Positions 1-7,918 of a stretch of DNA of 7,966 nt are shown here, in pieces; positions within the stretch are counted from its first letter, which is position 1; every line of letters starts with the position of its first letter. The stretch is from NCBI GenBank assembly GCA_905211185.1, contig CAJLZR010000035.1:1-7966 (forward strand), given 5' to 3'. The translations under genes and the position numbers were made by a program. The notes under the pieces are model-generated. The model did no database searches. It was not told the DNA's origin and saw only the letters and a list, made by a program, of their open reading frames with translations. This DNA comes from an uncultured Oscillospiraceae bacterium. GTDB taxonomy: Bacteria > Bacillota_A > Clostridia > Oscillospirales > Acutalibacteraceae.

Positions 1-579
1 GCCATCTTCTCTTGGCACACCATCTACACGCTTTCCAAGTCCGATCACGGTATGACGCAGCGCACGGTCATTCATATCCATACATCTTTTTATAAGTATT
101 CTTCTTGGGTCTATATTTAAGCAGTTGCCCTGATGAATGTGATTATCAAGTGCGGCGCATAAAAGGTTGTTGGCCGATGTTATTGCGTGCATGTCGCCGG
201 TAAAATGTAGGTTTATATCTTCCATGGGGAGAACCTGCGAATAGCCGCCGCCTGTTGCGCCGCCCTTTATCCCGAAAACGGGCCCTAAAGATGGCTCCCT
301 TAGTGCTATAACCGCATTTTTACCGATTTTGTGCATAGCTTGACCAAGGCCTATGGTCACGGTTGGTTTTCCCTCCCCCGCCGGAGTGGGGTTTATCGCC
401 GTTACCAATATAAGTTTTCCATTAGGACTACTTTTTAAGCGATCATATACGCTATCTTTTATTTTTGCTTTATAGTTTCCGTAAAGCTCGTATTCTTCGG
501 GGGATATGCCCAATTTTTTTGCTATTTCGGTAATTGGCTCAATTTTTGTTTGATTTGCTATTTCAATATCAGAAAGCAT
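1..579 (-). CDS. fhs: Formate--tetrahydrofolate ligase, N-terminal part (gene runs off the left edge)
   Basis: Cytosolic one-carbon enzyme that makes 10-formyl-tetrahydrofolate from formate, ATP and tetrahydrofolate. The first 193 residues are visible; the family is usually about 550-560 residues, so about two thirds lies outside. Family signatures are clear: [10 protein letters not shown] near residues 31-40, the nucleotide-binding loop PTPAGEGK at 64-71, LREPSLGP at 93-100, [12 protein letters not shown] at 102-113, [12 protein letters not shown] at 118-129, and DNHIHQGN at 145-152. The ATG start (577-579) has an AAAGGA-type SD about 9 bases upstream and gives the expected N-terminus. One oddity is that the residue after the loop lysine is Pro72, where homologues I remember carry Thr or Ser. 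The gene is divergent from the unknown gene at 736 and appears to have its own promoter. The identification is secure. Confidence 0.97.
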
Positions 580-735: not shown

Positions 736-2136
736 ATGGGTTTAAGTACAATGATTTCAAAACATAATGTTGCTAAACAACAAAAACAGAATGAAGAAAT
801 GAGAAATAGGATGGCTACTTTGCGAAAAAAGCTGGTGACAAGTCCTAGTTACAAAAAGCTTAATAGTAAAGATGGTGATATTCCGTATGCAGTTAATACG
901 GAAATTATGAAACAGGAAGTGCGTGATAAAACCTCTGAATTAGCGCAAAAAGCCTTTTGGTTTTCGGAAAAAAACGCCATTATACAAGAAGTTAAGGCTA
1001 ATAATATTCTTTTGTATTTTCCTGTGTACAAATCATTTGAAAAAGATAAAATCAAAAACTGGAGAAGGCTGGAAGATGCCGTCTTTGATCCTAATAATTG
1101 GCTTATGCTTAATGCGGTAAAAGATACAAATGCGTATAAGCACCTTATTAATAGTCGTGATCATATAAAATCTTTGGCATCGTATTTTTCCAATGTTTTA
1201 CAAATAAAGCCACCGAAGGGTGCATTAGATATAGCTAAAAATTTGGCTCAACGAGCTAAAGATAAAATTGAGGATAAGCGTGAAGTCGCTAACGCCAAAA
1301 GAAATTTAACTTCTAAAATAAGTAATCATAAAGAGGTACTGTCCGATTTTTATAATAAATTTAAAAACGAGACTGATTGTCTTCCTCCTGATTTTGACAA
1401 TATTTTTTCAGATCTAAAAAGAGCCCTTAATGGTGGCAAACGGGGAGCGACTGATCTGAATTTTGATAATTTTGTCAAATCGTATTGCAAAAAATTGAAC
1501 GTTAAAGAAATTAGGTATGTTACTACGCTTATTGACAAAGCGGTATATTATGTCGGAAAAAATAAGAAGTTGGAAGAACAATTTAAATCGGAATCGGGTG
1601 GGGAAATGCTAAATAAAAGAATTGATAAAGTAAAACGATTCCATAAATTTAGATTTAATTGTAATTTTTTTGCTAAGTTAGAAGAATTTTACGAGGAATG
1701 CAAACTTCAGTATTACACATATCTATCAATGTCTTCAATGCTTGATTTAGATGAGAAATTTGATTATAAAAATTTGCACGAACAATTTCCTAAAGATGTG
1801 GTTAAACTGTATGGGCTTCCGGGTTTTGATAAGTATCACAAAGAGTTGTTAGAGAAAGTTGAAGATGGTCGTCTTGCTGCTAAGTTAGTTGTTAATCAGG
1901 AATATGAACAAACAACTGATAAAACGTTTAACAGAGATTTGGAAATGTTTGAGAAGTGCCGTAAAAAAACAGATGAATTTTTGGACAGTATGTATGAGTA
2001 CGTATGCAAACATCCTGGACAAAATGTCTCCCCAAGTGAAATTCCCAAATCTAGAGCCGATAAAGTTGAAGCCCTGTTTGATGAAATGACTAAACGACTA
2101 AAAGCAATGAGAGATAACTGGAAAAATTTATCTTGA
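736..2136 (+). CDS. Unrecognised 466-residue helical cytoplasmic protein
   Basis: I do not recognise this protein. The ATG at 736 has a strong GAGGAG SD nine bases upstream and a good promoter, so it is very probably expressed. No signal peptide and no membrane-length hydrophobic stretch is visible. The protein is rich in Lys, Glu, Asp and Asn, with long charged segments that look alpha-helical or coiled-coil (about residues 12-33, 163-200, 275-302, 398-420 and 440-463). A basic N-terminus precedes an aromatic, more hydrophobic patch at 89-125 (ILLYFPVY, NWRRLEDAVF, NNWLML). About six scattered cysteines (for example 215, 251, 309, 322, 408 and 424) do not form a clear metal motif. No catalytic motif, nucleotide-binding loop or DNA-binding fold is evident. 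It is monocistronic, flanked by divergent fhs and convergent ireB, and looks like an accessory insertion between housekeeping genes. A structural, phage-derived or stress-related role is possible but unsupported. Confidence 0.8.
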   Translation: MGLSTMISKHNVAKQQKQNEEMRNRMATLRKKLVTSPSYKKLNSKDGDIPYAVNTEIMKQEVRDKTSELAQKAFWFSEKNAIIQEVKANNILLYFPVYKSFEKDKIKNWRRLEDAVFDPNNWLMLNAVKDTNAYKHLINSRDHIKSLASYFSNVLQIKPPKGALDIAKNLAQRAKDKIEDKREVANAKRNLTSKISNHKEVLSDFYNKFKNETDCLPPDFDNIFSDLKRALNGGKRGATDLNFDNFVKSYCKKLNVKEIRYVTTLIDKAVYYVGKNKKLEEQFKSESGGEMLNKRIDKVKRFHKFRFNCNFFAKLEEFYEECKLQYYTYLSMSSMLDLDEKFDYKNLHEQFPKDVVKLYGLPGFDKYHKELLEKVEDGRLAAKLVVNQEYEQTTDKTFNRDLEMFEKCRKKTDEFLDSMYEYVCKHPGQNVSPSEIPKSRADKVEALFDEMTKRLKAMRDNWKNLS

Positions 2137-2233: not shown

Positions 2234-2479
2234 TTAATTACTCAAATAAAATTTAATCAAATGCTGTAGGAGTTCGAATCTATCTATTTTTTTCATAAGG
2301 CTTCTGACCCCACCATGCGTTGTTATGTATGTGGGGTCGCCCGATACAATATATCCTGCTATTTGACTTATTGGGTTATAGCCCTTTTCTAAAAGTGCGT
2401 CGTACACTGCAGTCAATGTGTTTTTAAGATCCAGTTCTCTATCATTTTCCAGCGAAAAGGTCATAGTTTTATCATACAT
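2234..2479 (-). CDS. ireB: IreB-family regulatory phosphoprotein (UPF0297)
   Basis: This small cytosolic protein is, in Enterococcus, a substrate of the PASTA-domain Ser/Thr kinase IreK and a negative regulator of cephalosporin resistance. Its 81 residues match the family's usual length of about 80-90. The diagnostic core TLTAVYDALLEKGYNPISQI (21-40) and the following AGYIVSGDPTYI (41-52) are intact, with the usual basic/hydrophobic C-terminal helix. Thr5 and Thr7 lie in the short N-terminal tail, where the phosphorylated threonines of the family occur. The ATG (2477-2479) has a GAGGTG SD seven bases upstream. In many Firmicutes ireB sits between alaS and ruvX; here it is last in a block after yqeG and the dehydroquinase-like gene. 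It may have its own promoter. Family assignment is firm; the phosphorylation role is carried over from homologues. Confidence 0.93.
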   Translation of the reverse strand: MYDKTMTFSLENDRELDLKNTLTAVYDALLEKGYNPISQIAGYIVSGDPTYITTHGGVRSLMKKIDRFELLQHLIKFYLSN

Positions 2480-2559: not shown

Positions 2560-2997
2560 TTATATCAATTCTTTAAGGGCTTGCATGGCTAAAAAATAGC
2601 TATTTTTGCCAAAACCTGTTATTTGCCCTACGCATACATCAGAGATGACGGAGTGGTGCCTGAATTTTTCCCTTGCATATATATTTGTCATATTTACTTC
2701 CACGCATGGAATTTTAACAAAAGATATAGCATCCCTTATAGCATAGCTGTAGTACGCCAAAGCGCCGGCGTTTATTATATATCCATCGTGTGTATTTCTG
2801 CATTCATGAATTTTATCTATCAAAGCGCCTTCCCAATTGCTTTGAAAGACGTCACAATTTATTCCGAGTTTTTCGCCAAATGATGTTACTTGTGCCGTTA
2901 TACTTTCTGCCGTTTCCTCGCCATAAATGCCTTTTTCTTTTACTCCCGTCATGTTAAGGTTAGGACCAAGGAGTAATAATATGTTTTTGTTCTTCAT
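2560..2997 (-). CDS. Type II 3-dehydroquinate dehydratase-like protein with altered active site
   Basis: True AroQ enzymes dehydrate 3-dehydroquinate in the shikimate pathway as dodecamers. This protein has the family's length (145 residues) and fold signatures: GPNLN (11-15), IYG with the catalytic tyrosine (Tyr25), FQSNWEGALIDKIHE (51-65), DGYIINAG with Asn76, AIRDA (86-90), EV (100-101), and AREKFRHHS with Arg109 and Arg113. However, the segment normally reading EVHLSNIHARE reads EVNMTNIYARE here, so the catalytic histidine (His101 in the M. tuberculosis enzyme) is Asn102. The substrate-binding histidine of NPGAYTH is Tyr82, and the flap arginine is Lys20. It is probably not a normal dehydroquinase; it may be a repurposed paralogue or have a different substrate. 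The ATG has AAGGGG nine bases upstream. The gene overlaps the yqeG end by 38 bases, which suggests coupled translation. Homology is firm; function is open. Confidence 0.85.
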   Translation of the reverse strand: MKNKNILLLLGPNLNMTGVKEKGIYGEETAESITAQVTSFGEKLGINCDVFQSNWEGALIDKIHECRNTHDGYIINAGALAYYSYAIRDAISFVKIPCVEVNMTNIYAREKFRHHSVISDVCVGQITGFGKNSYFLAMQALKELI

Positions 2998-3535
2998 TTT
3001 CCGTAACCCCTTGCTTTTTTGTCATGTATTCCAGATCACTTAAATTTGATACTTGTAATTTTTTTCTAACTGATACTTCAAGTTTTCTTTTAAGTTTTAA
3101 AGTAAAATTTTTGGCCGGGCTCAGTGGATCGACGAGCACAGAATTGATCTTTGTGAATTTTGCGCCCAATACATCTGAAAAAACTTGATCTCCTACCATT
3201 AAAATATTTTCTTTTGGAAGCGAGAGCATTTCAATGGCTTTTTTGAGGCCTTTTCTAAATGGCTTTTTCGCTTCGTATATGTGAGGAACTTCAAGAATTT
3301 GTGCAAAATCCGAAACCCTTTTCTGTGAATTATTTGAAGCTATTACCATTTTAATTTTGTCTTCTTTTAGTCTTTTGACCCACTCTAAAACACTAGTTTC
3401 CGGATTTAAACATCCCAATGGGGCAAGGGTATCATCTATATCCAAAATTAAACCTTGGCAATTTACCCTAAACAAAAATTCAGTATCTATATCTATAACA
3501 CGTTTAAAAAAATAAGTGGGACTAAGTATAGACAT
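2960..3535 (-). CDS. yqeG: YqeG-family HAD phosphatase (HAD class IIIA)
   Basis: Soluble haloacid-dehalogenase-type phosphatase of the YqeG family, widespread in Firmicutes; its physiological substrate is not settled as far as I know. All four HAD motifs are visible. Motif I is LDIDDT, with nucleophile Asp32 and Asp34. Motif II is VIASNNS (about 64-70). Motif III is the lysine of EAKKP (88-92). Motif IV is GDQVFSD, with Asp116 and Asp121. The 191 residues slightly exceed the usual 160-175, owing to a charged C-terminal tail (about 172-191) encoded partly in the overlap with the downstream gene. The ATG (3533-3535) has a perfect AGGAGG SD, but 12 bases away, which is rather long. It lies downstream of rpsU, behind a strong hairpin. 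In Bacillus this family sits beside yqeH and aroE; pairing with a dehydroquinase-like gene here is a loose echo of that. Confidence 0.93.
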   Translation of the reverse strand: MSILSPTYFFKRVIDIDTEFLFRVNCQGLILDIDDTLAPLGCLNPETSVLEWVKRLKEDKIKMVIASNNSQKRVSDFAQILEVPHIYEAKKPFRKGLKKAIEMLSLPKENILMVGDQVFSDVLGAKFTKINSVLVDPLSPAKNFTLKLKRKLEVSVRKKLQVSNLSDLEYMTKKQGVTENEEQKHIITPWS

Positions 3536-3643: not shown

Positions 3644-4000
3644 TTACCACTTGTTATAGTACTTACCTTTTTTTCTGCGAGCCAGCTCTGATTTTTTCTT
3701 ACGCTTTACGGAGGGTTTTTCATAAGCTTCTCTTTTTTTGATTTCGGCAACTATACCGGAGCTTTGTCTTTTAAATCTTCTTAGTATGGATTCCAAAGAT
3801 TCGCTTTTCTTTTCAGGTTTAACTATATTTCCCTCGTTCGATTTTAAATTTTCTTCGAAAGCGTTACTTTTCGCAAGAATATTTTCGCCTGAGTTCGAAA
3901 CACTTTCGGAAACAACATCTTTTGCGATGTTTTCTTCATTGAGATTCGAATTTTCTGCAGGAATAGCATTCTCTACAACGTCTTTTGTTTCGTTATCCAT
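3644..4000 (-). CDS. rpsU: 30S ribosomal protein S21 (bS21) with a ~60-residue N-terminal extension
   Basis: The C-terminal half is unmistakable bS21: [12 protein letters not shown] (68-79), then [18 protein letters not shown] (88-105) and a basic tail. S21 sits on the 30S platform near the 3' end of 16S rRNA and aids initiation. The whole protein is 118 residues, while S21 is normally about 55-70. Residues 1-60 are a low-complexity, predicted disordered segment with about 13 Asp/Glu, 12 Asn and only 4 Lys, opposite in charge to the S21 domain. The start is well supported: ATG at 3998-4000 with AGGAGGG six bases upstream, behind a strong promoter. No ATG, GTG or TTG codon lies in frame near the domain boundary, so the extension is not a start-calling artefact. 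The S21 domain also looks about two residues shorter than usual between FKRQ and the EI/KKRE segment. The gene is the first of a probable rpsU-yqeG-dehydroquinase-like block. Confidence 0.95.
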
Positions 4001-4044
4001 TTGCTTCCCTCCTATCTGCCGAGATTAGGTCGTTTAAGGCATTT

Positions 4045-4084: not shown

Positions 4085-4114
4085 ATTATACAATATTTTG
4101 TTTTTTGTTGTCAA
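4085..4114 (-). promoter_or_regulatory. Strong sigma-A promoter for rpsU
   Basis: On the minus strand a perfect TTGACA (4109-4114) is followed after 18 bases by a perfect TATAAT (4085-4090). The predicted start near 4078 gives a leader of about 78 bases ending in the AGGAGGG ribosome-binding site (4007-4013). Strong consensus elements fit a ribosomal protein gene. Confidence 0.8.
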
Positions 4115-4232: not shown

Positions 4233-4277
4233 AAGTATAATTATTAAAAAATAAATTGTTTTTTGTGGAGTAAGTCT

Positions 4278-5303
4278 ATGAAACTTGAAAGTATGGATTC
4301 GATTTTTCCTGAAGAATGTGATAAAGTTTCGGTTGTGTTGCCGATTTTGAATGAAGAACGATATATAAGAAATTGCTTAGATTCAATTTTAAGCCAAGAT
4401 TATCCAAAAAATAATTTGGAAATTATTTTGGTTGATGGGAATTCGGAAGATAAAACAATTGATATTATTAAAGAATATACCCAAAAGTATAATTTTATAA
4501 AACTCTTTACAAATGAGAAAAAAACGGTTCAATATGCTCTAAATATCGGAATAAAAAATGCAACCGGTAAATATATAGTCAGAATGGACGCTCATGCAAG
4601 TTATGAAAATGACTATATCTCTAAATGCATAGAATATTTAAAGAAGACAAGATGCGCAAATGTTGGTGGAACAACGGTTGTAAGAGGTAAAAGTTTTATT
4701 CAGAAAATTATAGCGGCGGCATATCATTCGCCCTTTGCGCTCGGCGGAAGCAAACATTATGACGAAAATTATGAAGGATACGCGGATACGGTTGCCTGGG
4801 GGGCTTTTGAAAGAGAATATCTTTTAGAAATTGGTATGTATGATGAAAAATTGCCAAGAAGCGAAGATGATGACCTTAATTTCAGGATTACCGAAAGAGG
4901 CGATAAAATTTTCGTAACTCCAAAAATTAAAAGCGTTTATTATCCACGTGATACTTTTTCAAAGCTTTTTTTGCAATATTTTGGATATGGCAAATGGAAA
5001 GTTGCGGTAATAAAAAAACATCATAGACCTTCAAGAATAGCGCATTTAATACCAATGCTTTTTGTGGCGTTTTTGATTTTGGGAAGTATGATATCGTTGA
5101 TTGTACCTGTTTTAAGGCCTTTATTTGTTGGTGTGTTACTTATTTATCTTGCTATGAATTTTATTTTTTCTTTTAAAAACCCCTATACTAAAGATATTTT
5201 AAGTAAATTATTGCTTGTTTGGGCGCATTTTGTAATACATGTTTCGTATGGGCTTGGTTTTTGGGCCGGAATATTTAAATTTTTAAGTGTTAAATTTAAT
5301 TAA
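4278..5303 (+). CDS. Family 2 glycosyltransferase, ExoA-like, membrane anchored
   Basis: Probably adds a sugar from a nucleotide-sugar to a lipid-linked or growing polysaccharide at the inner face of the membrane. The GT-A domain fills about residues 16-250: VSVVLPILNEE (17-27), LVDGNSEDKT (51-60), the metal/nucleotide-binding region RMDAHA (102-107, the ExoA-type DXD variant), GG at 130-131, TVAWGAFERE (171-180), the acidic EDDD (196-199) holding the likely catalytic base, and QYFGYGKW (233-240) in the position of the QxxRW-like motif. Two or three hydrophobic membrane segments follow (about 256-298 and 308-336). This resembles the succinoglycan ExoA group. The start is set at ATG 4278, with GGAG seven bases upstream; an in-frame TTG at 4263 lacks a ribosome-binding site. 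It is the first gene of the surface-polymer cluster. Sugar specificity cannot be read from the sequence. Confidence 0.9.
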   Translation: MKLESMDSIFPEECDKVSVVLPILNEERYIRNCLDSILSQDYPKNNLEIILVDGNSEDKTIDIIKEYTQKYNFIKLFTNEKKTVQYALNIGIKNATGKYIVRMDAHASYENDYISKCIEYLKKTRCANVGGTTVVRGKSFIQKIIAAAYHSPFALGGSKHYDENYEGYADTVAWGAFEREYLLEIGMYDEKLPRSEDDDLNFRITERGDKIFVTPKIKSVYYPRDTFSKLFLQYFGYGKWKVAVIKKHHRPSRIAHLIPMLFVAFLILGSMISLIVPVLRPLFVGVLLIYLAMNFIFSFKNPYTKDILSKLLLVWAHFVIHVSYGLGFWAGIFKFLSVKFN

Positions 5304-5305
5304 TT

Positions 5306-6166
5306 GTGGTTGGTGATGTTGTTTTGGAAGATAAATTTTTAAAACTAAGCGACGAGGAGCTAAGAAGCCTACAGCTTAAAAGTTTAGAAATACTGCTTTA
5401 TTTTAAGAAGTTTTGCGAAGAACATAATTTGATGTTTTATTTTTGCGGTGGTTGTTGCATAGGGGTGCTGCGCCACCAAGGGTTTATTCCGTGGGACGAT
5501 GATATAGATATTTTTATGCCGCGTAATGACTATGAAAAACTTTTTAAAATTTGGAATAAATATGCAGATACCGAAAAATATTCGTGCAATCGTACAACAA
5601 AAGATGTGTTTATAGGAAACGTAATGACCACCATAACCGATAATCACACAAAAGTTATAAGGCCCTGGCAAAAAGGAAAAGATGGGGCAAAGGGTGTTAT
5701 GATAGATGTTTTACCTCTTGATGGCTGTGCTCCCAAAGGAATAAAGAGAAAAATGCAAATGTTTTGGAGTATGGTTTTTACTCTTTATTGTTCAAAAATG
5801 GTTCCTGTTAATCACGGAAAAATAATGTCTGCCATATGTAAAATTTTACTTGGTATTATTCCCGGTGATAAACTAAAATATAAAATTTGGAAGTTTGCCG
5901 AAAAGCAGATGAGCAAATATCCAATAAAGGATTCAAAATTTATAACCGAGCTTTGTGCAGGCCCCCATTATATGAAAAATGAATATCCAAAAGAAATATT
6001 CGAAAAGGCAGTATATAAGACTTTTGAAGGGTATCAGATGCCGGTGCCGGTTGGTTATGATAAGTATCTAAAAATGGCATTTGGGGATTATATGAAGCTG
6101 CCGCCGAAAGAAAAACAAATTCCGCATCATGATATAATATATATGAATTTAAATGAATCTCAATAA
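5306..6166 (+). CDS. LicD-family phosphotransferase (candidate ribitol-phosphate or phosphocholine transferase)
   Basis: LicD/fukutin-family proteins move a phosphorylated alcohol (phosphocholine, ribitol phosphate or similar) from a CDP donor onto a glycan. The N-terminal half has the hallmark layout: LSDEELRSLQL (14-24), FCGGCCIG (46-53), VLRHQGFIPWDDDIDIFMPR (54-73) with the metal-binding Asp64-Asp65-Asp66-Ile-Asp68, and DYEKL (75-79). The C-terminal YDKYLKMAFGDYMKLPP (251-267) is also typical. The cytosolic enzyme has no clear signal peptide. It starts two bases after the glycosyltransferase stop if the GTG at 5306 is used. The TTG at 5324 is an equally plausible start, with SD-like GGTGAT at 5312-5317, giving MEDKFLKLSDEE. 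Because tarI and tarJ follow directly, CDP-ribitol is the most likely donor; no choline genes are visible. Family firm, donor inferred. Confidence 0.92.
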   Translation: MVGDVVLEDKFLKLSDEELRSLQLKSLEILLYFKKFCEEHNLMFYFCGGCCIGVLRHQGFIPWDDDIDIFMPRNDYEKLFKIWNKYADTEKYSCNRTTKDVFIGNVMTTITDNHTKVIRPWQKGKDGAKGVMIDVLPLDGCAPKGIKRKMQMFWSMVFTLYCSKMVPVNHGKIMSAICKILLGIIPGDKLKYKIWKFAEKQMSKYPIKDSKFITELCAGPHYMKNEYPKEIFEKAVYKTFEGYQMPVPVGYDKYLKMAFGDYMKLPPKEKQIPHHDIIYMNLNESQ

Positions 6167-6189
6167 ATATTAAAATGGAGGATAATTTT

Positions 6190-6909
6190 ATGATTTTTGG
6201 AGCAATAGTTGCAGGTGGGGTAGGAAACAGAATGAACCTTTCGGGACTCCCGAAACAGTTTTTGCCACTGGGAAAATCCCAGAAGCCAATAATAATACAC
6301 ACTTTGGAAAAATTTCTTATTTGTGAAAAATTGGATTTTATTTATTTGGGTATAAATAAAGATTGGCTTGGGTATGCAGAGGAGCTTTTAGATAAATATG
6401 ATATTGATAAAAAGAAAGTTTTTATCGTGCCGGGTGGTGCCGATAGAAATTTGACTATTTTAAATATAATCGAAGCTATTGAAAAAAATCATGGCGAAAG
6501 CAAGGAACATATAATAGTCACTCATGATGCGGTCAGACCTTTTGTAACTCTTAGAATGTTAAACGAGAATATTGAAGCTGCCAAAGAATGCGGAGCGTGT
6601 GATACTGTAACCCCCGCAATTGATACAATAATTGAATCAAAGGACGGAAAATTTATTTCTTCGGTTCCGCAAAGGAGTTTTATGTACCAAGGCCAAACCC
6701 CGCAAACTTTTAATATGTCTGAACTTAAAAGGCTCTATAACGATCTTACGGAAGAAGAAAAAAGCATATTGACCGATGCATGTAAAATTTTTACGTTTAG
6801 GAACAAACCCGTTAAAATGGTTCAAGGTGATGCGTTTAATATTAAAATTACCACCGTTAGCGATTATAAAATAGCCGAAGCTATAATTGGGGGAAACCTG
6901 TGTGATTAA
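6190..6909 (+). CDS. tarI: TarI-type D-ribitol-5-phosphate cytidylyltransferase
   Basis: Joins CTP and ribitol-5-phosphate to give CDP-ribitol, the donor for ribitol-phosphate polymers. The 239 residues form a complete IspD/TarI nucleotidyltransferase: AGGVGNRM (8-15), LPKQFLPLG (20-28), the ribitol-family GGADRN (82-87), THDAVRPF (111-118), YQGQTPQTFN (166-175), TDACKI (195-200), and NIKITT (217-222). IspD is the main alternative, but residue similarity to staphylococcal TarI as I remember it, and the tarJ partner, favour TarI. The start is ATG 6190 with GGAGG eight bases upstream; an in-frame ATG at 6175 overlaps that ribosome-binding site and would precede the conserved N-terminus. The gene lies 23 bases after licD and overlaps tarJ by 8 bases. 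The visible catalytic motifs are intact. Confidence 0.93.
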   Translation: MIFGAIVAGGVGNRMNLSGLPKQFLPLGKSQKPIIIHTLEKFLICEKLDFIYLGINKDWLGYAEELLDKYDIDKKKVFIVPGGADRNLTILNIIEAIEKNHGESKEHIIVTHDAVRPFVTLRMLNENIEAAKECGACDTVTPAIDTIIESKDGKFISSVPQRSFMYQGQTPQTFNMSELKRLYNDLTEEEKSILTDACKIFTFRNKPVKMVQGDAFNIKITTVSDYKIAEAIIGGNLCD

Positions 6910-7918
6910 TTATGTTTATCAATTAATTAGACCCGGTGTGATTTCCATAAAATACGAAGATGTAGAATCAAAAAACGATGTTATTGTAAGGCCTTTATAT
7001 ATGGCGGTTTGTCATGCGGATCAAAGGTATTATAGGGGGATGCGTGATATTGATAAACTAAAAAATAAGCTTCCCATGGCTTTGATTCACGAGTGTGTAG
7101 GCGAGGTTGTTTTTGACCCTCATAATGCATTTGAAAAAGGGCAAAAAGTTACAATGATCCCAAACGTTAAATCTAAAATAAATGATGAAAGTATATACGA
7201 AAACTACCAAAAGGGTTCGGCTTTTCTTTCAAGCGGAAAAGATGGATTTATGCGTGAGTTTGTAAATTTAGATGCAGACAGGCTGGTAAGTATCGGGAGC
7301 GTTTCTTGCCAGTTTGCAGCTATTTCCGAATTTATAAGCGTTGGAGTGCATGCGGTTAACAGATTAATTAAAAACGCCAATAAAAATATGAATTCTTTCG
7401 GAATTTGGGGTGATGGAAGCCTTGCATATGTTGTTTCATGCATTATCAAACAAACATTTCCCAAAGCAAAGCTTTGCATTGTAGGTAGAGATTTATTTAA
7501 ACTATCACAATTTACGTTTGCAGATGAAACTTACTTTTCCGATAATATTCCGAAAGATTTTTGTATTGACCATGCCTTTGAGTGCGCAGGCGGCGAAGGA
7601 AGTTATTATGCCATTGATGATATTATAAAATATATAAATCCTCAAGGCACCGTTATGCTGATGGGCGTTAGCGAAAACAAAGTTGCCATAAATACGCGCG
7701 ATGTTTTGGAAAAATGTCTTAAGCTTATAGGTTCAAGTAGGTCCGGGCGAGAGGATTTTGAAAAAGCTGTGGAGTTTTTAAATGAGCCGACATTTCAAAA
7801 GAGAATTAGCAGAATTATATATGAAGACGCGCCTGTGGGCTCTATTTCTGATATACACAGAGTTTTTGAAACTGATTTAAAAACGCCATTTAAGACCGTA
7901 TTTAAGTGGAATTTATAA
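6902..7918 (+). CDS. tarJ: TarJ-type ribulose-5-phosphate reductase (zinc-dependent alcohol dehydrogenase family)
   Basis: Reduces D-ribulose-5-phosphate to D-ribitol-5-phosphate with NADPH, supplying TarI. Its 338 residues closely match known TarJ (about 340). Diagnostic stretches are INYVYQLIRPG at the N-terminus, VIVRPLYMAVCHADQRYY (27-44), LPMALIHECVGEVVFD (57-72), SSGKDGFMREFV (110-121), FGIWGDGSLAYV (166-177, the dinucleotide-binding turn), DHAFECAGGEGS (223-234), and LIGSSRSG (275-282). Probable zinc ligands are Cys37, His63 and Glu64, as in medium-chain dehydrogenases. The GTG start at 6902 overlaps the tarI end by 8 bases and gives the MIN-YQL N-terminus seen in staphylococcal TarJ; an upstream TTG at 6887 does not fit the family. 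A weak GGGGG (6889-6893) serves as the ribosome-binding site, consistent with coupled translation. Identification is strong. Confidence 0.95.
   Translation: MINYVYQLIRPGVISIKYEDVESKNDVIVRPLYMAVCHADQRYYRGMRDIDKLKNKLPMALIHECVGEVVFDPHNAFEKGQKVTMIPNVKSKINDESIYENYQKGSAFLSSGKDGFMREFVNLDADRLVSIGSVSCQFAAISEFISVGVHAVNRLIKNANKNMNSFGIWGDGSLAYVVSCIIKQTFPKAKLCIVGRDLFKLSQFTFADETYFSDNIPKDFCIDHAFECAGGEGSYYAIDDIIKYINPQGTVMLMGVSENKVAINTRDVLEKCLKLIGSSRSGREDFEKAVEFLNEPTFQKRISRIIYEDAPVGSISDIHRVFETDLKTPFKTVFKWNL

What the first reader, a model, noticed from the sequence alone, without database searches (positions are those of the whole stretch)
3644..4000. Ribosomal protein S21 with a 60-residue acidic, Asn-rich N-terminal extension
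Seen: a complete bS21 domain at residues ~60-112, preceded in frame by about 60 residues with ~13 acidic, ~12 Asn and 4 Lys. The only initiation codon in frame is the ATG at 4000, with a near-perfect SD and a consensus promoter upstream, and no alternative start lies near the domain boundary. Known: bS21 is normally 55-70 residues and sits beside the anti-SD end of 16S rRNA. Inferred: an acidic disordered tail there could alter mRNA docking, mask the basic domain before assembly, or recruit a partner. The domain also seems shortened by about two residues after FKRQ.
Basis: partly seen in the sequence, partly recalled or inferred. Interest (0 to 1): 0.7.

Follow-up and report, generated by a model that had tools for sequence, protein, structure and literature searches.

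The report
Ribosomal protein S21 with disordered tail
In one lineage of gut Clostridia with very small genomes, the small ribosomal protein S21 has roughly doubled in length by gaining a floppy, mostly negatively charged tail between its start codon and its RNA-binding core; the tail is real and inherited, but what it does is not known.

Summary
Window 3644-4000 (-) encodes a 118-residue bS21 (Pfam 47 bits, cut-off 27) with about 65 polar, acidic residues before the core and two residues missing after FKRQ. It is no artefact: the window shares gene order with six relatives and groups with two genomes of one genus (bootstrap 100) whose members are 0.8-1.3 Mb. In an rpoB tree of 28 genomes one clade (100/100) holds all 11 genomes with a tailed S21 plus three where no S21 was found; the 14 outside have ordinary-length S21. 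All 11 genus members match ATP/ADP translocase, one weakly, which fits a published endosymbiotic 'small genome clade' (PMC10579323). In 72 proteins picked as tailed, tails are 26-101 residues, 68 net negative, and all 72 share the two-residue deletion. A side branch keeps the ordinary N-terminal strand and has near-neutral tails. In one relative S21 alone has an N-terminal extension over 15 residues. Shine-Dalgarno use is normal, against altered mRNA docking. Most likely a working bS21 with a clade-specific disordered appendage; whether the tail is selected or merely tolerated is open.

The parts
3644..4000 (-). rpsU: bS21, 118 aa, including stop codon
3806..4000 (-). N-terminal tail, residues 1-65: 14 D/E, 7 K/R, net -7; no helix or strand in the model, block pLDDT 46-59 over residues 1-60
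3647..3805 (-). S21 core and C-terminus, residues 66-118, net +13; two helices in a low-confidence model (69-94, 98-110); two residues shorter after FKRQ; C-terminal end YYNKW
4007..4013 (-). Shine-Dalgarno AGGAGGG, six bases before the ATG
   Evidence: similar motifs before rpsU in relatives
4007..4029 (-). candidate leader hairpin whose 3' arm runs into the SD
   Evidence: the window itself reaches only 4 bp by the strict test; suggestive only
4085..4114 (-). consensus promoter TTGACA-18-TATAAT
2960..3535 (-). yqeG HAD phosphatase, conserved neighbour
2560..2997 (-). aroQ, type II 3-dehydroquinase, conserved neighbour
2234..2479 (-). ireB, neighbour in six relatives
4263..7918 (+). divergent GT2, LicD, ribitol-5-P cytidylyltransferase-like and dehydrogenase genes; same order in six relatives, not found beside rpsU in G558

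Best explanation
A genuine, apparently single-copy bS21 whose basic core still docks on the 30S platform, but whose N-terminus was rebuilt once in the ancestor of a small-genome clade of Clostridia. A polar, disordered segment grew between the start codon (with its SD) and the core. Two residues were lost after FKRQ. In most descendants the short N-terminal strand (xVxVK) was lost or diluted. Shown: reality, inheritance, one origin on the rpoB tree, co-occurrence with the deletion, mostly negative charge. Inferred: docking; that the tail stays solvent-exposed; and that it acts as an entropic and electrostatic brush that tempers RNA binding of the basic core before and during the late docking of bS21, without changing SD-dependent initiation.
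For: Family scores over cut-off. On the rpoB tree 11 of 11 S21s found inside a 100/100 clade are tailed and 14 of 14 outside are ordinary (G003 and G485 labelled from open-frame length only). Synteny and tree put the window inside. An SD and start stand next to the tail in relatives. 72 of 72 proteins picked as tailed have the deletion, 68 of 72 tails are net negative, median hydrophobic fraction of tails 0.23, core net +11 to +17. First-60-residue segments of 561 ORFs in one relative average +1.6, SD 4.2. In that relative no other ribosomal protein found has an N-terminal extension over 15 residues. The tail has no predicted secondary structure.
Against: No experiment shows ribosome incorporation or any tail function. 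Tail sequence is poorly conserved, and four of 72 tails are neutral or positive. The S21 core evolves fast in parts of the clade, as under relaxed constraint. Three of 11 genus genomes show no S21, from MAG gaps or loss. In the neighbour-gene tree G339 does not group with the genus, on weak support. The AlphaFold model is weak (mean pLDDT 59.1) and finds no structural match.
Confidence: 0.4

Rival explanations
1. The tail has no selected function. It is a low-complexity segment that grew by slippage and tandem duplication and is tolerated because bS21 is under weak constraint in a reduced-genome lineage.
For: Tail repeats in P0121 and P0148. Core distance relative to rpoB is 2.0 in the genus (1.65 without G558, 1.18 without G558 and G557) against 0.55-0.68 in canonical relatives. 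pN/pS of S21 is 0.79 in G392-G557 and 0.38 in G565-G560, the highest defined value at the locus in both pairs. No S21 was found in three of 11 genus genomes.
Against: The tail is present in all 11 clade members on the rpoB tree in which S21 was found, although their genomes are small. Tails are mostly net negative with few hydrophobics. Among the window and P0001-P0005 the core is almost invariant while the tail drifts. In G565 no other ribosomal protein found gained an N-terminal tail over 15 residues.
Confidence: 0.38
2. The tail changes translation initiation by acting near the anti-SD end of 16S rRNA, for example repelling or redirecting mRNA.
For: Published location and role of bS21 at the 16S 3' end in Flavobacterium (passages of PMC9976891). 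54 of 72 tailed proteins have an aromatic residue in the last four positions.
Against: An SD of at least 4 bases precedes 48-57% of ORFs in three tailed genomes with over 100 ORFs each and 29-56% in five canonical relatives, with shifted controls of 5-12%; small samples from G392, G557 and the window (7-15 ORFs) give 40-43% with controls of 14-20%. rpsU itself keeps a strong SD.
Confidence: 0.12
3. The tail is removed, by an internal start or processing, so that the mature protein is ordinary.
For: A TTG codon at residue 69. Two public records look like tailed S21 annotated from internal starts (P0150 compared with P0145, P0164 with P0162).
Against: No SD before the TTG, which would give only 50 residues. 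The SD and start upstream of the tail recur in relatives.
Confidence: 0.08
4. Frameshift, misassembly or fusion of two ORFs.
For: None found.
Against: Clusters from several sources encode the same layout and the locus is syntenic in related genomes.
Confidence: 0.01

Closest known systems
Canonical bS21 of Bacillota (Pfam PF01165, TIGR00030), 57-62 residues in the relatives printed
   Same: Core with [10 protein letters not shown] motif, SD before the start, rpsU-yqeG-aroQ locus in many relatives
   Different: No tail; N-terminal strand present; two more residues after FKRQ
bS21 of Bacteroidia (Flavobacterium johnsoniae), which with bS18 and bS6 sequesters the anti-SD
   Same: Strong SD before rpsU; bS21 with lineage-specific features
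   Different: There SD is little used and Tyr54 stacks on A1534; here SD use is normal; no such tail appears in the passages seen
Borrelia bS21 with a longer C-terminal helix, and uL30 with an N-terminal extension (PMC10618245)
   Same: Lineage-specific extension of a ribosomal protein
   Different: Ordered helical extensions, on bS21 at the other end (passages)
Acutalibacteraceae small genome clade, Candidatus Improbicoccus (PMC10579323)
   Same: Family (inferred), genome size, ATP/ADP translocase in relatives
   Different: A term search of the paper's main text found no S21, rpsU or 'ribosomal protein'

Membership tests
bS21 (PF01165 / TIGR00030) | Score over curated cut-off | tested here: met
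   47 vs 27 and 48.8 vs 28.95 bits
bS21 (PF01165 / TIGR00030) | Basic core with KPSVxRKxK motif, two helices | tested here: met
   Motif by alignment; helices 69-94 and 98-110 only in a low-confidence model
bS21 (PF01165 / TIGR00030) | N-terminal strand xVxVK (typical, not part of the curated cut-off) | tested here: not met
   Absent in window; kept in the G339 type
bS21 (PF01165 / TIGR00030) | Conserved chromosomal locus, single copy | tested here: inconclusive
   Synteny met; one S21 in 27 of 30 relatives, none in 3; copy number in the window's own genome could not be tested
bS21 (PF01165 / TIGR00030) | Present in 30S subunits | not testable with these tools
   No proteomics available
Small genome clade of Acutalibacteraceae | ATP/ADP translocase | tested here: inconclusive
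   Matched in all 11 genus genomes (G392 only by a weak match, 52.6 bits) and in G339; not testable in the window's own genome
Small genome clade of Acutalibacteraceae | Phylogenetic position | tested here: inconclusive
   Window groups with G392 and G557, bootstrap 100. That their genus belongs to the published clade is inferred from size, translocase and family: C. sporosphaeroides shares the family (GTDB name recalled) and one record is named Acutalibacteraceae (P0150). The published genomes were not compared
Bacteroidia-type anti-SD-occluding bS21 | SD-independent initiation genome-wide | tested here: not met
   SD enrichment normal in relatives

The most novel reading that the evidence does not exclude
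A host-dependent clade of Clostridia has evolved a selected, length-variable polyanionic tail on bS21 as a built-in RNA-mimic that controls when and how firmly this last-joining protein sits on the 30S platform, making a ribosome type not described before, with the two-residue deletion and strand loss as coupled refits.
Probability: 0.2. Interest if true: 0.75.

Novelty: new variant of a known kind. Interest (0 to 1): 0.5.

Why it matters
Here a bacterial ribosomal protein gained a long disordered tail, once as far as the rpoB tree shows, on the protein that sits next to the anti-SD end of 16S rRNA, in what looks like a clade published as intracellular energy parasites. Forms with tail plus old strand, full forms and very divergent forms all survive, so the remodelling of a ribosomal protein can be followed step by step. 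At least two public records seem to trim the tail from the start, so it is easily missed.

Tried and rejected
Alternative start or read-through origin: judged unlikely, because the SD and start upstream of the tail resemble those of canonical relatives, so the tail seems to have grown inside the ORF. Loss of SD use as the driver: not supported. A general habit of ribosomal protein tails: not seen at N-termini in G565 (46 of 49 queries, i.e. 48 ribosomal proteins and IF3, found in about 663 kb; S6, S18 and L19 not found; C-terminal surplus against E. coli in S16 +40, IF3 +29, S12 +18; start choice favoured SD-like sites). 16S 3' end: not tested, because RF00177 gave hits in only 3 of 30 genomes and the only genus hit (G564) is partial and runs into other sequence. 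Structure: AlphaFold mean pLDDT 59.1 and no Foldseek match. The deletion as a unique mark of the tail: rejected, since P0188 and P0189, without such a tail, also have it. A first core-divergence figure included a misaligned C-terminal insertion and was replaced. Rfam: no match in the window, none at rpsU leaders over gathering. The order-wide sample (295 genomes, 272 with a match) gave no match scoring like the tailed ones.

Full report
What is there. The window encodes on the minus strand, at 3644-4000, a 118-residue protein whose residues 64-111 match Ribosomal_S21 (47 bits, cut-off 27) and whose residues 65-113 match TIGR00030 (48.8 bits, cut-off 28.95). An AGGAGGG lies six bases before the ATG, and a 12-of-12 promoter match lies at 4114-4085. 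The only in-frame ATG/GTG/TTG besides the ATG at 4000 is a TTG at residue 69, without an SD.

It is real and shared. A protein search returned nine complete close homologues, P0001-P0009, of 104-123 residues, with the same layout: polar tail, FKRQSSG or FKKQSSG where canonical bS21 has forms such as FKRQCARAG, and an altered C-terminal end. A tenth, P0021, is cut short at its C-terminus and was left out of counts. Sampling 250 genomes from one family with an alignment of these gave three clear tailed genomes by score, G492, G392 and G339; three more divergent ones, G362, G469 and G545, came to light later. The genus of G492 holds 11 genomes, 8 with a match; sizes are 0.8-1.3 Mb. The family also contains Clostridium sporosphaeroides (L048 lies in G027; G027 is listed), which I recall as GTDB Acutalibacteraceae; one record is named Acutalibacteraceae bacterium (P0150).

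Where the window belongs. Among nine contexts fetched, the order rpsU, yqeG, aroQ, ireB, with GT2, LicD, a ribitol-5-phosphate cytidylyltransferase-like gene and a dehydrogenase running the other way, is the same in the window and in G492, G392, G563, G557, G565 and G560. G564 (3.5 kb contig), G558 and G339 show only rpsU, yqeG and aroQ; in G558 the contig reaches but the divergent genes and ireB were not found, and in G339 ireB was not found. A concatenated tree of these neighbours groups the window with G392 and G557 at bootstrap 100. Deeper forks in that tree are weak (several under 60), canonical rows hold only about 300 of 1600 residues, and G339 does not group with the genus there. The row called G485x_L048 is L048, which lies in G027. 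The window's own genome is not held.

Host-dependence marker. ATP/ADP translocase (PF03219) was found in 21 of 60 genomes searched: all 11 of the genus, G339, and nine of the 39 other small genomes; none of nine larger genomes and none of 14 control genomes had it. In G392 the only match is weak and divergent (52.6 bits). G469, which has a tailed S21, showed none. This fits the small genome clade of Acutalibacteraceae, described as putative energy parasites that include endosymbionts of termite-gut protists (PMC10579323; passages read). That the window's genus belongs to that clade is inferred; the published genomes were not compared. A term search of that paper's main text found no S21, rpsU or 'ribosomal protein'.

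One origin. In 30 genomes searched for S21, 27 had exactly one match and three (G559, G561, G562) had none. An rpoB search of 30 genomes (28 of these plus G010 and G485) gave 28 sequences. Their tree shows a 14-genome clade, support 100/100, in which all 11 genomes with an S21 have the tailed form and three have no S21 found; all 14 genomes outside have ordinary-length S21, including seven with the translocase. G469 and G010 were checked by reading their frames; G003 and G485 rest on open-frame lengths of 62 and 58. On this tree the tail arose once. The fork that makes G339 the first branch of the clade has support 88/79.

What changed, in what order. G339 and similar proteins (P0153, P0155, P0159, P0167) have the tail and the two-residue deletion but keep the N-terminal strand, for example KIVVGKNESL. 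The genus of G492 and the window have lost or diluted it. G362, G545, G469 and G558 are more divergent. A set of 72 tailed proteins was taken: the window, P0001-P0009, P0121-P0149, P0151-P0163, P0165-P0173 and eleven of P0179-P0194. Left out were P0021 (truncated), P0150 and P0164 (apparently annotated from internal starts), and canonical or chimeric entries; P0162 was kept although its start is annotated 12 residues too early. In this set tails are 26-101 residues (median 51.5), 68 of 72 are net negative, two are zero and two positive, and all 72 have five residues between the core Phe or Tyr and Gly instead of seven. Because the set was chosen for having tails, and comes from capped lists of the best 120 hits, it shows composition, not frequency. 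The five strand-keeping tails run from -3 to +2, so strong charge may have come after length; this is an inference.

Control for a general habit. In about 663 kb of G565, 46 of 49 E. coli translation-protein queries (48 ribosomal proteins and IF3) found a homologue. S21 has +27 residues at the N-terminus; the next are L24 (+15), L15 (+12) and S2 (+10), and no other exceeds +8. S16 (+40), IF3 (+29) and S12 (+18) have extra C-terminal residues. First-60-residue segments of 561 ORFs in this genome (mechanical ORFs of at least 150 codons) have mean net charge +1.6 (SD 4.2); 7 of 561 reach -9, the window's value.

Rates. Mean pairwise distance of the S21 core divided by that of rpoB is 1.88 for ten tailed genomes, 2.00 within the genus, 1.65 without G558, 1.18 without G558 and G557, against 0.68 and 0.55 for canonical relatives with and without translocase (7 and 4 genomes). 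At the locus, S21 has the highest defined pN/pS in two close pairs, 0.79 and 0.38; against the pooled neighbours Fisher p is about 7e-6 and 8e-6. Caveats: synonymous distances vary along the locus, and frames were taken from stop to stop, so some leader codons are included in the second pair. Against a simple decay story, the core is nearly invariant among the window and P0001-P0005, and two other close pairs show no marked excess (G565-G560 0.027 against rpoB 0.024; G492-G563 0.081 against 0.120).

Initiation. With the first ATG taken blindly, an SD of at least four bases precedes 48%, 57% and 50% of ORFs in G565, G563 and G492 (126-498 ORFs each), and 29-56% in five canonical translocase-bearing genomes (29-88 ORFs each); the shifted control is 5-12% in these. 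G392, G557 and the window, with 7-15 ORFs, give 40-43% with controls of 14-20%. SD-dependent initiation therefore looks intact. The 16S 3' end could not be read.

Structure. AlphaFold with ten sequences gives two helices, 69-94 and 98-110, and no structure in the tail, at low confidence. No Foldseek match was returned. By sequence, 24 distinct solved bS21 sequences match, all of 88 residues or fewer, with the match starting at chain residue 2-11, so none of these has such a tail.

How it most likely works. The core is kept basic (+11 to +17) and the locus and SD are kept, so I take it as a working bS21. bS21 is described as the last protein to join the 30S (passage of PMC12054373). A disordered polar and mostly acidic tail on a very basic late-joining protein would most simply reduce unspecific RNA contacts before docking and stay mobile afterwards. 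This step is inference. The main rival, a tolerated low-complexity expansion under weak constraint, is almost as likely; repeats in P0121 and P0148 and the fast core in part of the clade favour it, while persistence in 11 of 11 clade genomes with an S21 and the charge bias speak against it.

Novelty. Library searches for S21 or bS21 with N-terminal extension, for rpsU with leader or disorder, and for an acidic extension in endosymbionts (listings, with passages of five listed papers) showed no description of such a tail. The library lacks most subscription journals.

Noticed in passing
window 4007-4029 (-); leaders of L001-L080 and other loci: A hairpin such as ACCCAUGCC-loop-GGCAGAUGGGAGGG, whose 3' arm runs into the SD, precedes rpsU in many relatives: 20 of 80 distinct canonical leaders against 2.5 expected from shuffles by a strict test, 2 of 11 tailed ones (0.6 expected; the window itself only 4 bp). 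Relatedness inflates this. No Rfam family over gathering. Possible autoregulation of bS21.
   Followed up: partly
window 736-2136 (+): 466-residue ORF with an SD and no Pfam or NCBIfam match, and no relative found in the loci held.
   Followed up: no
G392 against G557 (L131, L134): rpoB differs at 0.4% of residues but the S21 core at 27%; a tail repeat of 18 residues was scored in the close protein P0121.
   Followed up: partly
G565 contig C2, rpsP: S16 has about 40 extra C-terminal residues of low complexity against E. coli.
   Followed up: no
P0150, P0164: Public records appear to annotate tailed S21 from internal starts, hiding the tail.
   Followed up: partly
P0188, P0189: S21 without such a tail but with the same two-residue deletion, so the deletion also occurs without it.
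   Followed up: no
G559, G561, G562: No S21 found although close relatives have it; MAG gap or loss.
   Followed up: no
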